Shown piece after piece: positions 1-30,972 of a DNA stretch of 64,000 bases (position 1 is its first letter; every line of letters begins with the position of its first letter). The position numbers were made by a program, and so were the translations under genes. This DNA is from a virus. Location of the stretch: positions 1-64,000 of the IMG/VR virus record IMGVR_UViG_3300032293_001706; one strand, given 5' to 3'. A model generated the notes under the pieces. It did no database searches and was not told the DNA's origin. It saw nothing but the letters and a program-made list of their open reading frames with translations.

Positions 1-416
1 ACCTGATAAAATCCATATTTCAATCTGTCGGCATATTCTTTAACTTTGTTATAGAACTCATCAGGAATGTCTTTGAGTAATTCATTGATGTCACCACCAT
101 TAGATAAATGTTCCCAAACACCAGTGGTTGAGATATTGGTCATTATTTTATGAAGACGCAAGTATTCTTCGCCTTTGATTTTCATTCGGTCTCCGTTTGA
201 AAAACGAACAACAAATCCTTCAGCGTTTTGTTCAACTTTACCCTTTAACTCGGAATAATCCCGAACTCCGTCATATTTTTTGACAACATCGAAACCTTCT
301 AATGATTTAAGTTCTAAGTATGGAATTTCATTACCTGTTTCAGTGTTAAACGCACCAAGTAATACAAGACCCTCATAATCACCATAATCTACAACTATTC
401 TATTTTGACCTCCCAT
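1..416 (-). CDS. RNA ligase (T4 Rnl1 type), C-terminal fragment, runs off window
   Basis: Translation from ATG at 416 begins MGGQNRIVVDYGDYEGLVLL and continues off the left edge. It matches the part of T4 RNA ligase 1 after motif III (NRIV...Y...ILL), then motif IV (AEGFVVRF, like EGYVAVM in T4) and motif V (MKIKGEEY, like FKIKSDWY). The adenylated lysine is absent here; it lies in the ORF at 1178-1597. The two pieces together give one continuous ligase interrupted only by the GIY-YIG gene. This piece has its own ATG, so it may be a separately translated subunit. No Shine-Dalgarno sequence is visible. The family match is firm; function as a two-part enzyme is inference. Confidence 0.85.
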   Translation of the reverse strand, partial: MGGQNRIVVDYGDYEGLVLLGAFNTETGNEIPYLELKSLEGFDVVKKYDGVRDYSELKGKVEQNAEGFVVRFSNGDRMKIKGEEYLRLHKIMTNISTTGVWEHLSNGGDINELLKDIPDEFYNKVKEYADRLKYGFYQ

Positions 417-423
417 AATTTTT

Positions 424-1128
424 TTATTTATTTTTACAATTTTCAAAATGCCATCTATACATTAACCCTTCACCACCTTCTTTACCACAATATGGACAAA
501 TTATTTTTTTTCTTGGTATCCCTTTAGTTTTTGATGGTTTTCCTTTTTTCGATTCACTTATTTTTCTTTTTGTATTCTCACTTTTATTTTTACCTGGATT
601 GTTTTCAGTAAAATATTTTTTTCTATACTCCTTAAACTCATCACTACGTGTTTTTCCATACATAGGATTTAATTTGCCAACGTATTTACCTTTCATAGAT
701 TGACTTTGTTTTGGTCTTTTTTGACCCTTATTTGATTTACTAATTTTATCCCCAATTTCTTTGGCTCTTTTCTCACCAAATCGTTCAATGAAGGTTTTAT
801 TTGAATATAATTTTTTATATTTTTCTTTTATTTCCCCTGATGGGTTATTTAAACCATCACCTCCATCAGTCATATTAACTAAAATACCTTCATTCAAATC
901 TTTTCTACCATAAATTTTAATCCAATATTTTTCCCTTTCAGATGCGTCTTCCCAAGATAAATTATCTTCGATTATTTCAAATTTAAATCCAACTTTTTTA
1001 ACGATAAAATTCCAATACCTATTCCTACTTTTTTTATCAGATGCTCTTTTGTAATCAGTATCACTACCAATACCAACATAAAAAATCTGATTATTGTCAT
1101 TTCTTTTGTGGATATAAACGTACGCCAT
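424..1128 (-). CDS. GIY-YIG homing endonuclease inserted in the RNA ligase gene
   Basis: The N-terminus has the GIY-YIG pattern (VYIH at residues 4-7, FYVGIG about ten residues later), followed by an E/R-rich region (WEDASEREKYWIKIYG). The central and C-terminal parts carry NUMOD3-type DNA-binding motifs (GKLNPMYGKTRSDEFK; KISESKKGKPSK), and the protein ends in a zinc-finger-like CPYCGKE...HFENCK. This is the layout of I-TevI/Seg-type phage homing enzymes. It lies exactly between the two ligase pieces, with about 50 nt before and 7 nt after it, too little flank for a group I intron core outside the ORF. It is therefore more likely a free-standing gene that split its target. A late-type motif precedes its start. 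Confidence 0.9.
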   Translation of the reverse strand: MAYVYIHKRNDNNQIFYVGIGSDTDYKRASDKKSRNRYWNFIVKKVGFKFEIIEDNLSWEDASEREKYWIKIYGRKDLNEGILVNMTDGGDGLNNPSGEIKEKYKKLYSNKTFIERFGEKRAKEIGDKISKSNKGQKRPKQSQSMKGKYVGKLNPMYGKTRSDEFKEYRKKYFTENNPGKNKSENTKRKISESKKGKPSKTKGIPRKKIICPYCGKEGGEGLMYRWHFENCKNK

Positions 1129-1141
1129 AAAGGTGATTTAT

Positions 1142-1150
1142 TATAAATAT
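1142..1150 (-). promoter_or_regulatory. Candidate late promoter motif (ATATTTATA)
   Basis: On the - strand ATATTTATA lies 13 nt before the endonuclease ATG. It is the same motif seen before most virion genes in this window. It also means that the inserted endonuclease gene carries its own transcription signal inside the ligase locus. Confidence 0.5.
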
Positions 1151-1177
1151 CTTTTATAGTTAAAAACAATTCAATTA

Positions 1178-1597
1178 TTAGTAAATTATTTCAAAAAGGT
1201 ATGTGTTGTTTTTGTCTAAATTTTCTAATGGGTATTTTGAAGATAATTCTTTAGCTTTAATAGCTTGTTCAGACGTAAAAGAACCTCTAGTTGCGAATAT
1301 CCATTCATCGTTATAGTAAAATAATATGATACAACTACCATCCATCTTTTCAAAGACTTCAAATTCAGAAGTCGGAGTATGTTTACCTTCTTCAAGATTA
1401 AAAAACTTCTTGAAGGGTCTTGCAACTATATTTCCTTCATTATCAGTTACAAGACCACGACACATCAAAGTAATTTCATCCCACAATTCTTCATATTGAA
1501 CTTTAGGTGTATAGTTCCATATGGTTAAAGGCAACCTTGGGTGAGTCTGTTTATACAACAAACCAAGAGAATGATATTTTTCAAGAGTTTCCTTCAT
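1178..1597 (-). CDS. RNA ligase (T4 Rnl1 type), N-terminal catalytic fragment
   Basis: 139 residues that hold the nucleotidyltransferase motif I lysine (FEKMDGSCI, Lys84). Upstream is the typical CRGLVTD...ARPFKKFFN region of T4 Rnl1 (ECRGIMF...ASRPMEKFFNL), and it ends after motif IIIa (YLFEIIY). T4 Rnl1 continues with NRIV... at this point; here a stop codon follows, and the rest of the enzyme starts again at 416 beyond the GIY-YIG gene. Rnl1 seals broken tRNA using ATP. The neighbouring kinase and phosphoesterase supply the end-healing steps. Full-length Rnl1 proteins are around 370 residues, so this ORF alone is not a complete ligase. Confidence 0.88.
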   Translation of the reverse strand: MKETLEKYHSLGLLYKQTHPRLPLTIWNYTPKVQYEELWDEITLMCRGLVTDNEGNIVARPFKKFFNLEEGKHTPTSEFEVFEKMDGSCIILFYYNDEWIFATRGSFTSEQAIKAKELSSKYPLENLDKNNTYLFEIIY

Positions 1598-1601
1598 ACT
1601 A

Positions 1602-1632
1602 CAAAATTACAAAAAAAGATGGACATATCAAA
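1602..1632 (-). promoter_or_regulatory. Bacteroidota-type promoter for the ligase gene
   Basis: On the - strand TTTG (1629-1632) and TAATTTTG (1602-1609) are separated by 19 nt, matching the Bacteroidota sigma consensus TTTG-N19-TAnnTTTG. The -7 element ends about 5 nt before the ATG at 1597, implying an almost leaderless mRNA. Confidence 0.5.
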
Positions 1633-2029
1633 GAAGTTTAATTTGGAACCTGTCCTTCATCGCCTGTAGTTTTTCTTCAGGAACACCGTGTTGGTTTACA
1701 CCATCATGTCTTTTTTCAACAATTATGGAATGAACACGATATCCATACTTTTCCGCCAATTTGAAATAATCCTCCATTTCCCACTCTTGGGTGAAAGTAT
1801 TTGAAACAACAACTGTTGGATGTTCATTGCTCATTAAAAATTCAACCTCATCCTTACACCATTGATGTGCTTCTTTTAATTGGGATGGATTAAACTTATA
1901 TTCACCGTCCCTATTTAGAAAAAACATGTCAGCTTCTTTGTGACAATAATCTTTATCACCAACCAAAGATTTAGCTAATGTCGATTTTCCTGCCCCAGGA
2001 ATTGAGCGGATTAGATATAGGTTTTTCAT
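1628..2029 (-). CDS. P-loop polynucleotide kinase-like protein
   Basis: 133 residues with an N-terminal Walker A loop (SIPGAGKSTLAKSL, Lys15) and the general order of small AAA_33/Pnk-type kinases (SNTFTQEWEM then a strand ending IIVEKRHDGVNQHGVP). Proteins of this form phosphorylate nucleic-acid 5' ends. Its position directly between an RNA ligase and a metallophosphoesterase suggests that it makes the 5'-phosphate needed by the ligase. It is separated from the upstream phosphoesterase gene by 1 nt, so they share an mRNA. The substrate (RNA or DNA) cannot be read from the sequence. Confidence 0.75.
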   Translation of the reverse strand: MKNLYLIRSIPGAGKSTLAKSLVGDKDYCHKEADMFFLNRDGEYKFNPSQLKEAHQWCKDEVEFLMSNEHPTVVVSNTFTQEWEMEDYFKLAEKYGYRVHSIIVEKRHDGVNQHGVPEEKLQAMKDRFQIKLL

Positions 2030-2030
2030 A

Positions 2031-2681
2031 TTAGTTAATTCGTTTTTCGTGATGGTCTTTTGGAAGAGAAAGTTTTTTAATTGGTCGGTTCTTCATAATT
2101 GACATAATTTCTTCATAAGAAATCGGATACATATTATTTCCATCCACACCAACATCCATCGCCTTTCCATCTGCAATCCTCAAATGAGGTGGAAGATGAA
2201 CGTGACCATGAAGGTGAATTATTCCATCATTCATTCCGTCCCAACTTGCAACTGGATAATGCATACACACCATTGTCGTTTTTTCAACCACTTCTCCTTT
2301 TGGAATCCTGATATCAAGATGCAAATAATCTCTAGTTGAAGAAAACAATTCTTGACAATTTTGTTTATTCCTACGAATGTGGTGGTCGTGATTACCGAAT
2401 GTCAGGTGAATATTTTTACAAACAATTCGATTTCGGAATTCTTCAATCATTTCAAAACCACCAAAAGACCAATCTCCAAGGTGAATCAAAATATCATCCT
2501 GACCAACAACTTCGTTAATGTTGTTAACCAGTGTGGAATTCATTTGTTCAAGACTTTTAAAGTCACGAGTCACACTATCAGAATCCTTCCATTTTGTGGT
2601 TGCCCGACAAATATTTGAATGGGAATAGTGAGTATCACTTGTAAAAAACAATTTTCGACCTTTTTCCAAAATAAATTTCAT
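2031..2681 (-). CDS. Calcineurin-like metallophosphoesterase
   Basis: 216 residues with all metallophosphoesterase motifs in order: SDTHYSH (Asp16, His18), HLGDWSFGG, FGNHDHH, MHYPVASW and HLHGHVH. First gene of the RNA-repair cluster. In bacterial Pnkp the 3'-phosphatase/2',3'-phosphodiesterase domain belongs to this same superfamily and sits next to a kinase and a ligase. A role in healing RNA 3' ends is therefore a reasonable inference, although nucleotide or DNA phosphatase activity is also possible. A host-type promoter lies directly upstream. Confidence 0.85.
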   Translation of the reverse strand: MKFILEKGRKLFFTSDTHYSHSNICRATTKWKDSDSVTRDFKSLEQMNSTLVNNINEVVGQDDILIHLGDWSFGGFEMIEEFRNRIVCKNIHLTFGNHDHHIRRNKQNCQELFSSTRDYLHLDIRIPKGEVVEKTTMVCMHYPVASWDGMNDGIIHLHGHVHLPPHLRIADGKAMDVGVDGNNMYPISYEEIMSIMKNRPIKKLSLPKDHHEKRIN

Positions 2682-27975: not shown

Positions 27976-30972
27976 ATGGCAGATAATTATACAATATGGC
28001 AAAGACTTACAAGGGTTTTTGGTCCTGATTCAACATTAGGTCAACAACCTCCTGTATATAAGTTTGATAAAAAAGAACTTCTTAAAACAACTGACAAACA
28101 AGAATATGAAAAAGAGAAGTTACAAGCACAACAAAGTTACTATTTAGGTCAACAGTGGGCAAAGATTGAAAACAATTTATATACCCAAGCAATATATTAT
28201 GAACCAACAAGATTAGCGTCATATTATGATTACGAATCGATGGAGTTTTCGATTGCTGGGGATACAAAAATTGCAACACCTGATGGTTTTATAACAATAA
28301 AAGAGTTGGCGGATAAGGGTAGAGATTATGAATTTGTAACTTACGCTTATGACCACAACTTAAATAAAGTGGTTCCCGCAAAAGCAAGAAACGCCCACTA
28401 TACAAGAGATGAGATGACTTATAAAATAACATTTGACGATGGTAGTCATATTATTGCGACATATGGTCATAGATTTTTGAAACGTGATGGTGTGTTTTGT
28501 GAAGTTGAAAATTTGAAACCCGGAGATTCAATGATGCCATTTTATAGAAAATCATTCTATGCAAATGAAAAGTATAATTGGGTTTATACTTGTAATAAAA
28601 ATGAAGGTCATAATGGATGGATTAGTGAACATAATTTAATAGCTGAGTGGTTCTATGATAAGAAAGTATTAGAAGATGAAGAAGTTCATCATATAGACTT
28701 TAATGGTAAAAATAACTTACCTGAAAATTTACAAATAATGAAAATTTCAAAACATAGAGCATATCATGCTAGATTAAACAATGAAAAACTTTGGTCGAAT
28801 CCTGAATATAGACAAAAAATGTCTGAAACGGCAAGACGTAAAGGTAAGTTAAAATGGGACGGAAAAAGAAAAGGTCAAAATAATCCTTCATATATTAAAT
28901 TGTCATTTAACTTATTAGTTAATACCGCAAAAGAATATAGGACTTTAGAAAAAACGTCAAAAGTTTTAGGGGTATCAATCAAAAAAATACAAAATGAATT
29001 AAGATTTAATGGGTTCAAATGTTGGGATGACTTTTTAAAATTTTATAATCTTAAAAAATATCATAAAAATACTGAAAATTATGAATTATTAGATTTTAAA
29101 CTAATACCTTGGGACTTACTTATTGATACCGCAAAGAAGGGAAAAACAATGCAAAATGTTTGTGATACTTTAGGAATTACTTTTGGTAAATTAAGGTCGA
29201 CAATAAGACAAGGAGGGTATAGAAATTGGACAACATTTATGGATGCGTATGGTTTAGAATATGGTAAAGTTGGTAGAAAAAAACCAGTTGAATCTAATTT
29301 ATTAAATCATAAAATAGTATCTATTGAACCTTATGGCGTTGTACCTGTTTATGATTTAACAGTTCCTGGATACAAAAATTTTGCAACCGATACCATCTTT
29401 TCACACAATACTCCTGAAATATCAACTGCTTTAGATATTTACGCTGAAGAATCTACAACAACAAATGAAGATGGATACATATTACAAATATATTCAGAGT
29501 CTTCACGTATAAAAGGAGTTTTGGCTGATTTATTTAATAATAGGTTAGATATTAATACTAACCTACCAATGTGGACTAGAAACACCTGTAAATATGGTGA
29601 CAATTTTGTATACTTAAAACTTGACCCTGAAAAAGGAATTGTAGGTTGTCAACAACTACCAAATATTGAAATTGAGCGTTTGGAAAGGGGTATGAAGATA
29701 AAACCTTCACATAGTACATCTGAAGATGCAAAATCCTTAAAATTTGTATGGAAAGTTAAGGATATGGAGTTTAATACTTGGGAAATTGCCCACTTTAGAT
29801 TATTGGGTGATGACAGAAAACTTCCGTATGGAACAAGTATGTTGGAAAAAGCAAGAAGAACTTGGAAACAACTATTACTTTCTGAAGATGCAATGTTAAT
29901 TTATAGAACATCAAGAGCACCTGAAAGAAGAGTATTTAAAATATTTGTTGGAAATATGGATGATAAAGATGTTGAACCATATATCCAAAGAATTGCAAAT
30001 AAATTCAAACGTGACCAAGTTGTTGACCCAAAAAGTGGTAATGTTGATTTACGTATGAATCAAATGGCTGTTGACCAAGATTTCTTTATTCCTGTCCGTG
30101 ATGCCGCACAAACAAGTCCAATCGAAACATTACAGGGAGCACAAAATCTGTCTGAAATTGCCGATATCGAATACATTCAAAAGAAATTACTAACAGCATT
30201 ACGTGTTCCAAAAGCGTTTTTAGGTTTTGAAGAAGTTGTTGGTGATGGTAAAAACTTGGCATTACAAGACATTCGTTTTGCAAGAACAATCAATAGAATC
30301 CAAAAATCAATGATTCAAGAGTTAAATAAGATTGCAATTATTCACTTGTTCATATTAGGGTTTGAGGATGAATTAACAAACTTTACATTGGGTCTAACAA
30401 ATCCATCAACACAGGCAGATTTGTTAAAAATTGACACTTGGAAAGAAAAAATCACTTTATATAAAGACGCAGTATCCGACCCAGGTCTTGGAATACAACC
30501 AGTTTCCGCAACTTGGGCAAAGAAACATATTCTTGGATTTTCTGATGAAGAAATTAAGTTGGATATTCAACAACAAAGAATTGAAAGAGCGGTAGGCGCC
30601 GAACTTCAAAAAACCGCTGAGGTTATTATTCATACAGGCTTGTTTGATAATATTGATAAGTTATATGGTAAAAAACCTGGTGAAGCGGCTGGAGAAGCAC
30701 CTCCGACAGGTGGTGAACCATCAGATATGGGTGGTGGACCTCCCGATATTGGTGGTGGTGGACCTCCCGATATTGGTGGTCCTGAAGGAATGGAAATGCC
30801 AAGCGCTCCAACAGGAGGACCTGAATTGGCACCTGAATCAAAACTTGAAAAAGATATGAATTTAATTCTTGAAGATAATATGATAACAGGTGTTGATGAG
30901 ATTGATTTATCAAAAGGAAGGAAATCTTTATTGGAGATTGAAAATAAATTAGATGATTTATTAAATAAATAA
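27976..30972 (+). CDS. Portal protein (T4 gp20 type) with intein
   Basis: 998 residues, of which 92-478 are an intein; the spliced portal is about 611 residues. Extein parts: LGQQWAKIENNLYTQAIYYE upstream and TPEISTALDIYAEE downstream, which join to the gp20-like SMEF-TPEIS-ALDIYA region, then APERRVFKIFVGNMDDKDVE, the stem and crown part, and a Gly/Pro-rich tail (GGGPPDIGGGGPPDIGG) before a short acidic C-terminus. The portal is the twelve-fold ring at the packaging vertex. The tail repeat is longer than in T4 and may interact with scaffold. Confidence 0.94.
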   Translation: MADNYTIWQRLTRVFGPDSTLGQQPPVYKFDKKELLKTTDKQEYEKEKLQAQQSYYLGQQWAKIENNLYTQAIYYEPTRLASYYDYESMEFSIAGDTKIATPDGFITIKELADKGRDYEFVTYAYDHNLNKVVPAKARNAHYTRDEMTYKITFDDGSHIIATYGHRFLKRDGVFCEVENLKPGDSMMPFYRKSFYANEKYNWVYTCNKNEGHNGWISEHNLIAEWFYDKKVLEDEEVHHIDFNGKNNLPENLQIMKISKHRAYHARLNNEKLWSNPEYRQKMSETARRKGKLKWDGKRKGQNNPSYIKLSFNLLVNTAKEYRTLEKTSKVLGVSIKKIQNELRFNGFKCWDDFLKFYNLKKYHKNTENYELLDFKLIPWDLLIDTAKKGKTMQNVCDTLGITFGKLRSTIRQGGYRNWTTFMDAYGLEYGKVGRKKPVESNLLNHKIVSIEPYGVVPVYDLTVPGYKNFATDTIFSHNTPEISTALDIYAEESTTTNEDGYILQIYSESSRIKGVLADLFNNRLDINTNLPMWTRNTCKYGDNFVYLKLDPEKGIVGCQQLPNIEIERLERGMKIKPSHSTSEDAKSLKFVWKVKDMEFNTWEIAHFRLLGDDRKLPYGTSMLEKARRTWKQLLLSEDAMLIYRTSRAPERRVFKIFVGNMDDKDVEPYIQRIANKFKRDQVVDPKSGNVDLRMNQMAVDQDFFIPVRDAAQTSPIETLQGAQNLSEIADIEYIQKKLLTALRVPKAFLGFEEVVGDGKNLALQDIRFARTINRIQKSMIQELNKIAIIHLFILGFEDELTNFTLGLTNPSTQADLLKIDTWKEKITLYKDAVSDPGLGIQPVSATWAKKHILGFSDEEIKLDIQQQRIERAVGAELQKTAEVIIHTGLFDNIDKLYGKKPGEAAGEAPPTGGEPSDMGGGPPDIGGGGPPDIGGPEGMEMPSAPTGGPELAPESKLEKDMNLILEDNMITGVDEIDLSKGRKSLLEIENKLDDLLNK
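28249..29409 (+). mobile_element. Intein with HNH homing endonuclease in portal gene
   Basis: 387 residues beginning SIAGDTKIATPDGF (Ser1, block A), with block B TYGHRFL, block F VVPVYDLTVPGYKNFA and ending TIFSHN before Thr+1. The centre holds an HNH-type endonuclease (SEHNLIAEWFYD, VHHIDFNGKNNLPENL, ISKHRAYH) and two helix-turn-helix-like repeats (LLVNTAKEYRTLEKTSKVLG; LLIDTAKKGKTMQNVCDTLG). It is inserted in the most conserved part of the portal, as usual for phage inteins. Ser1 and Thr+1 instead of Cys should still splice. Confidence 0.92.

What the first reader, a model, noticed from the sequence alone, without database searches (positions are those of the whole stretch)
1..1597. RNA ligase in pieces, split by a GIY-YIG endonuclease gene
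Motif I (EKMDGS) and IIIa lie in the ORF at 1178-1597; motifs IV and V lie in a separate ORF beginning at its own ATG at 416; a 235-codon GIY-YIG gene fills the gap with only about 57 extra nt. There is not enough non-coding sequence for a usual group I intron. The layout resembles the homing-gene-split ribonucleotide reductase of Aeromonas phage Aeh1, where both halves assemble into an active enzyme.
Basis: partly seen in the sequence, partly recalled or inferred. Interest (0 to 1): 0.78.

Follow-up and report, generated by a model that had tools for sequence, protein, structure and literature searches.

The report
Phage RNA ligase split by endonuclease cassette
A phage gene for an RNA-repair enzyme is cut in two by a selfish DNA-cutting gene that appears to carry its own stop, promoter and new start, and about nine other versions of this split, with three kinds of endonuclease, lie at exactly the same spot in other phages, which suggests that genes can be stably split without any splicing element.

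Summary
On the minus strand, a T4 Rnl1-type RNA ligase is broken after motif IIIa (FEIIY-stop, 1597-1178). A GIY-YIG/NUMOD3 endonuclease (1128-424) fills the gap, and the C-half restarts at its own ATG (416, MGGQNRIVVDYGD...) and runs off the contig end. No group I intron, intein or bypass element was detected. Over 100 viral contigs carry the ligase uninterrupted. Besides the window, about nine other split alleles sit at exactly the same codon, with three endonuclease architectures (two GIY-YIG catalytic domains sharing one DNA-binding tail, and a Vsr-like enzyme). They are scattered over the ligase tree (at least 6 changes forced). Both halves keep the catalytic motifs and are under purifying selection. 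The insert behaves as a cassette: stop codon, degenerate copy of the downstream target (GIY-YIG alleles), the phage's own GATATTTATA promoter-like element, endonuclease, then (A/G)TG-GGN-GGN fused to exon 2. The target-like leader is better conserved than fourfold sites of the endonuclease, which suggests an operator like that of I-TevI. Assembly into an active ligase remains inferred.

The parts
1178..1597 (-). RNA ligase N-half (motifs I, IIIa), ends FEIIY-TAA; stop codon 1178-1180 is the first part of the insert
   Evidence: ORF; Pfam PF09511 E 6e-13; 51-82% identity to N-parts of uninterrupted ligases
1129..1180 (-). 52-nt leader of the insert: stop codon, operator-like target copy, promoter-like element
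   Evidence: leader alignments and shuffles
1156..1172 (-). operator-like core GAATTGTTTTTAACTAT, degenerate form of target GAATAGTTGTTGATTAT
   Evidence: matches leaders of L127, L130, L163, L129 at p<=0.001; direct match to the target only p=0.08 for this allele; cores of 7 alleles 84% alike versus 50% at fourfold sites of the endonuclease
1142..1151 (-). GATATTTATA promoter-like element of this phage
   Evidence: ATATTTAT, GATATTTA and TATTTATA are the three most over-represented 8-mers upstream of 64 window genes (14, 7 and 10 genes; about 9-10x)
424..1128 (-). GIY-YIG/NUMOD3 endonuclease gene (234 aa) with C-terminal zinc-finger-like CPYC...HFENC
   Evidence: Pfam PF01541 and PF07460; C-terminal part 46-58% identical to endonucleases of other split alleles
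3..416 (-). RNA ligase C-half (motifs IV, V), own start ATG-GGA-GGT-CAA; incomplete at contig end
   Evidence: up to 86-87% identity to C-part of uninterrupted ligases; same MGG[QK]NRIVVDYGD start in the other split alleles, VGG in one lineage
1628..2029 (-). P-loop kinase (AAA_33), upstream neighbour, possible RNA-repair partner
   Evidence: Pfam PF13671 E 3e-12
2031..2681 (-). metallophosphoesterase, upstream neighbour
   Evidence: Pfam PF00149 E 6e-5

Best explanation
The ligase gene has been invaded by a mobile homing-endonuclease cassette that splits it permanently into two separately translated halves. The cassette brings a stop codon that ends the N-half at motif IIIa, a leader resembling the endonuclease's own target, the phage's promoter-like element, the endonuclease, and a new ATG-GGN-GGN start for the C-half, whose translation is probably coupled to the stop of the preceding ORF. 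The N-half (motifs I, IIIa) and C-half (motifs IV, V) then assemble into a working Rnl1-type ligase. The endonuclease cuts uninterrupted ligase genes of co-infecting phages near the same site, and repair copies the cassette with short flanking exon stretches. In GIY-YIG cassettes the target-like leader probably serves as an operator at which the endonuclease represses its own promoter. Shown by sequence: split, cassette parts, recurrence at one site, absence of a detectable intron or intein, purifying selection. Inferred: cutting, homing, repression, coupling, assembly of active ligase.
For: Over 100 uninterrupted relatives and about nine other split alleles at the same codon. Split label needs 7 changes on the N-half tree (6 forced by supported branches) and 8 on the C-half quick tree (6 forced). 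dN/dS 0.09-0.32 (N) and 0.11-0.55 (C) between split alleles; motifs I, IIIa and IV kept in all, V in all but possibly L163. First 36 nt of the C-half 78-100% identical between split alleles, falling beyond; shared codons next to the insert exceed permutations (p 0.006 exon 2, 0.002 exon 1). Preceding ORF ends -22 to +11 nt from the C-half start. Promoter-like element found de novo. Leader conserved above fourfold sites in 21 of 21 pairs; I-TevI has such an operator (PMC2988022). Endonuclease-split nrdA and gene 43 are active (PMC2988022).
Against: No experiment shows ligase activity, association of halves or endonuclease cutting. The window C-half is cut off by the contig end, so this allele's completeness is unproved. 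In this window the leader's match to the target is not significant alone (p 0.08-0.38), only to the leaders of relatives. C-half dN/dS among L129/L134/L135 is higher (0.29-0.55). L163 has a GTG start and its motif V did not match the search pattern.
Confidence: 0.85

Rival explanations
1. The insert is a group I intron (or degenerate one) with an endonuclease ORF, spliced from the mRNA to restore one ligase.
For: GIY-YIG/NUMOD3 endonucleases often live in group I introns; insertion at a conserved motif is typical (general knowledge; for the domains).
Against: Only 59 non-ORF nt in the window and little more in most other alleles; no Rfam group I match at lenient or gathering thresholds; no unusual leader fold (z -0.19); C-half has its own ATG followed by cassette-derived GG codons in place of P-E.
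Confidence: 0.04
2. The split kills the ligase; the halves are decaying remnants kept by chance.
For: C-half dN/dS up to 0.55 in some pairs; phages may do without a ligase.
Against: No stop or frameshift in the halves of any split allele; most dN/dS values like those of uninterrupted genes; catalytic motifs conserved; start codon of the C-half kept.
Confidence: 0.08
3. The target-like leader is only an inherited scar of the original insertion, without operator function (this concerns the operator step alone).
For: A duplicated exon end is what an imprecise insertion would leave; the substitutions are shared, as by descent.
Against: 84% identity of the core against 50% at fourfold sites of the same endonucleases, 21 of 21 pairs; 33-nt version 10 of 10 pairs; it lies next to the promoter-like element; absent from the cassette with an unrelated endonuclease, L070. 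Pairs are not independent and the region is AT-rich.
Confidence: 0.35
4. Ribosomes bypass the insert, as in T4 gene 60, to make one protein.
For: T4 gene 60 bypass is linked to an endonuclease insertion (PMC5009743).
Against: Insert is 764-1680 nt and contains one or more ORFs; C-half has its own start codon.
Confidence: 0.01

Closest known systems
Aeh1 nrdA split by mobE (genes-in-pieces ribonucleotide reductase; Friedrich et al. 2007, as described in PMC2988022)
   Same: Homing endonuclease gene inside a conserved enzyme gene, no intron or intein, two separate polypeptides
   Different: There one phage, an HNH enzyme and proven activity; here a T4 Rnl1-type RNA ligase, about ten alleles at one codon, three endonuclease architectures, cassette with stop, promoter-like element and start
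Aeromonas phage gene 43 split (seg43 in phage 25, IC-UTS in 44RR; PMC2988022)
   Same: Gene split with a seg-type endonuclease between halves; halves copurify and are active
   Different: DNA polymerase; the related phage 44RR carries an untranslated spacer without endonuclease
Fractured genes with split inteins (Dassa et al. 2009; paper not held, from my own knowledge)
   Same: N-half, endonuclease, C-half; Vsr-like endonucleases related (29-34%) to that of L070 lie between split-intein halves in L236 and L237
   Different: No intein pieces in the split RNA ligase
T4 I-TevI autorepression operator (PMC2988022)
   Same: Degenerate homing site upstream of a GIY-YIG gene next to its promoter
   Different: Here outside an intron; binding untested
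T4 mobA / gene 39-60 (PMC5009743, PMC2988022)
   Same: Endonuclease insertion splitting a subunit gene
   Different: No bypass element seen here

Membership tests
Homing-endonuclease-split gene (genes-in-pieces, Aeh1 nrdA type) | Relatives carry the same gene uninterrupted at that point | tested here: met
   over 100 loci with no insert
Homing-endonuclease-split gene (genes-in-pieces, Aeh1 nrdA type) | Known endonuclease family gene in the gap | tested here: met
   GIY-YIG and NUMOD3 above Pfam cut-offs
Homing-endonuclease-split gene (genes-in-pieces, Aeh1 nrdA type) | No self-splicing intron or intein | tested here: met
   ends of halves
Homing-endonuclease-split gene (genes-in-pieces, Aeh1 nrdA type) | Both halves keep their catalytic residues under selection | tested here: met
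   motif V of L163 not matched by pattern; window C-half truncated by contig end
Homing-endonuclease-split gene (genes-in-pieces, Aeh1 nrdA type) | Halves assemble into an active enzyme | not testable with these tools
Group I intron with homing endonuclease | Group I catalytic core | tested here: not met
   no Rfam match; 59 non-ORF nt
Split-intein fractured gene | Intein fragments fused to both halves | tested here: not met
   N-half ends FEIIY-stop, C-half starts MGG; contrast L236, L237
T4 RNA ligase 1 family (PF09511) | Sequence match and motifs I, IIIa, IV, V | tested here: met
   N-half above cut-off; C-half alone below it (13 bits) but up to 86-87% identical to C-part of uninterrupted members; uninterrupted member L049 matches T4 Rnl1 2c5u E 6e-15
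I-TevI-type autorepressor operator | Degenerate homing site next to the endonuclease promoter | tested here: met
   significant in 6 of 7 GIY-YIG lineages, window only through relatives; the homing site itself is inferred from the insertion point
I-TevI-type autorepressor operator | Endonuclease binds and represses | not testable with these tools
   needs binding and reporter assays

The most novel reading that the evidence does not exclude
A class of intron-less, intein-less mobile elements that move as portable gene-fission cassettes: stop codon, self-repressing operator and promoter, endonuclease, new start codon. The punctuation stays fixed while the endonuclease is exchanged, and the host gene's C-half becomes dependent on the selfish gene's transcript.
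Probability: 0.55. Interest if true: 0.75.

Novelty: new variant of a known kind. Interest (0 to 1): 0.64.

Why it matters
The cases of a gene split by a homing endonuclease that the literature search returned are few and single (nrdA, gene 39/60, gene 43). Here one site in one enzyme has been split in many phage lineages with a reusable set of punctuation signals, so the evolution, cost and retention of gene fission can be studied comparatively, and split Rnl1-type ligases become natural candidates for two-part RNA-joining tools. It also suggests a third way, besides introns and inteins, for an endonuclease to live inside a conserved gene.

Tried and rejected
Group I intron by Rfam at lenient and gathering thresholds: none. 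Leader RNA fold: ordinary. Close DNA or protein relatives in isolated phages: none; ligases at most 46%, endonucleases below 60% in 184 records. Split alleles in bacterial genome contigs by the RTGGGNGGN... pattern: 65 matches, none a ligase by tblastn; L357 and L358 from a last viral scan are chance matches. The remainder of the C-half at the other contig end: not found. Papers: no held paper found reporting a split RNA ligase of this kind; most subscription journals are not held, and the Friedrich 2007 and Dassa 2009 papers could not be read.

Full report
Check. The window is G000:C1:1-64000 of a 190,552-nt viral contig with T4-like terminase and portal genes. All coordinates of the finding hold. 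On the minus strand a T4 Rnl1-type RNA ligase is interrupted: N-half 1597-1178 ending FEIIY-TAA, GIY-YIG/NUMOD3 endonuclease 1128-424, C-half from ATG 416 to the contig end. The N-half is the only PF09511 match in the contig, and the missing last part of the C-half is not at the other end.

Relatives. tblastn of both halves over fetched viral contigs gave 135 entries with both halves; 21 of these, reducing to about ten lineages with the window, are split. Patterns for the cassette's right and left borders added L124-L138 and L151, L152, L163. Several alleles recur in separate contigs (L131/L132/L135/L137; L126/L138; L151/L152/L163), which speaks against assembly error. Every split lies after the Y of FEIIY, where alignment of an uninterrupted homologue to 2c5u puts the T4 Rnl1 sequence FEFVAPTNRIV, and every C-half restarts MGG[QK]NRIVVDYGD (VGG in L163).

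What is in the insert. The first bases are always a stop codon. In GIY-YIG alleles a degenerate copy of the downstream exon follows; in L125 it is still readable in frame as IYPQNSVVLDYD behind the stop. Then comes GATATTTATA or a near form. Counting 8-mers upstream of 64 window genes without prior choice, ATATTTAT (14 genes), GATATTTA (7) and TATTTATA (10) are the top three, so this is probably a phage promoter; over the whole contig the 8-mer itself is not in excess. The endonuclease follows, in some alleles with small ORFs (MKTAM...), and the last ORF stops within -22 to +11 nt of the C-half start.

Three endonuclease architectures use the site: GIY-YIG type A (window, L127), GIY-YIG type B (L125, L130, L124, L126, L129, L134, L135, L163) and a Vsr-like enzyme (L070, L133; the label Vsr-like rests on my reading of its motifs and its relatives, Pfam gives only DUF7487). 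Types A and B differ in the catalytic domain but share the C-terminal region (46-58% identity); L130 has a different last segment. Relatives of the Vsr-like enzyme sit between split-intein halves of other ligase genes (L236, L237), so an endonuclease of one family occurs with inteins there and without them here.

Spread and function. Split and uninterrupted alleles are mixed in the trees: 7 changes on the N-half tree with 6 forced, 8 and 6 on the C-half quick tree; several rows have long branches. In the window the N-half is nearest to L060 (81%) and the C-half to L046 (87%), while L046's N-part is only 54% identical. The 36 nt at the start of the C-half are much more alike between split alleles than what follows, and codon sharing on both sides of the insert exceeds permutations: co-conversion, as expected of homing. 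dN/dS between split alleles is low in both halves and the catalytic motifs persist.

Leader. The leaders of the seven GIY-YIG lineages are related to each other (the window to L127, L130, L163 and L129 at p<=0.001) and to the uninterrupted target (not significant for the window alone, p 0.08; an earlier test with the whole leader gave 0.38). L070's leader resembles neither. The 17-nt core is 84% identical on average, the fourfold sites of the same endonucleases 50%, higher in 21 of 21 pairs. All cores share two changes from the target, A to T at position 5 and G to T or C at position 9. I-TevI represses itself at a degenerate homing site over its late promoter (PMC2988022); the leader here has that arrangement, and I take it as the likeliest role, untested. 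The core was chosen as the best-aligned stretch, the pairs are not independent, and the region is AT-rich; the unselected 33-nt comparison in type B alleles still exceeds fourfold sites in 10 of 10 pairs.

Comparison and verdict. By anatomy this belongs with genes split by homing endonucleases (nrdA of Aeh1, gene 43 of Aeromonas phages, T4 gene 39/60; PMC2988022, PMC5009743). Tested and not met: group I intron, split intein. What is new, as far as the held papers show, is the host gene, the recurrence at one codon with exchanged endonucleases, and a cassette carrying its own punctuation and a likely operator. Activity of the assembled ligase and of the endonuclease remains to be shown.

Noticed in passing
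window 27976-30972 (+): T4-like portal protein (PF07230) of 998 aa interrupted in frame by an intein (PF14890, residues 106-478) with an HNH region: the same genome tolerates a second endonuclease insertion by protein splicing.
   Followed up: partly
L070 5852-6333 (+), 7893-8285 (-): GOLLD RNA (325 bits) directly followed by a tRNA, and a tmRNA on the other strand, in a contig with a split ligase.
   Followed up: no
L127 N-half ORF, upstream part: Ligase N-half fused in frame behind a DNA methylase domain (PF01555), 491 aa in all.
   Followed up: partly
L134 and L124, between endonuclease and C-half: Small ORFs MKTAM...YYNQTYNQNK (69-79 aa; two in L134), the one tested without Pfam match, inside the cassette.
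   Followed up: partly
L235 4418-6542 (+): A different, HNH-fused RNA-ligase-like gene broken right at motif I (VVLEKLL-stop) by a Vsr-like endonuclease gene, with an apparent frameshift at the C-part start; the related gene in L236 has a split intein there.
   Followed up: partly
L126/L138 N-half: An extra stretch of some 40 residues between motif I and the RGSF motif; N-parts of L034-L037 are longer by about the same length.
   Followed up: no
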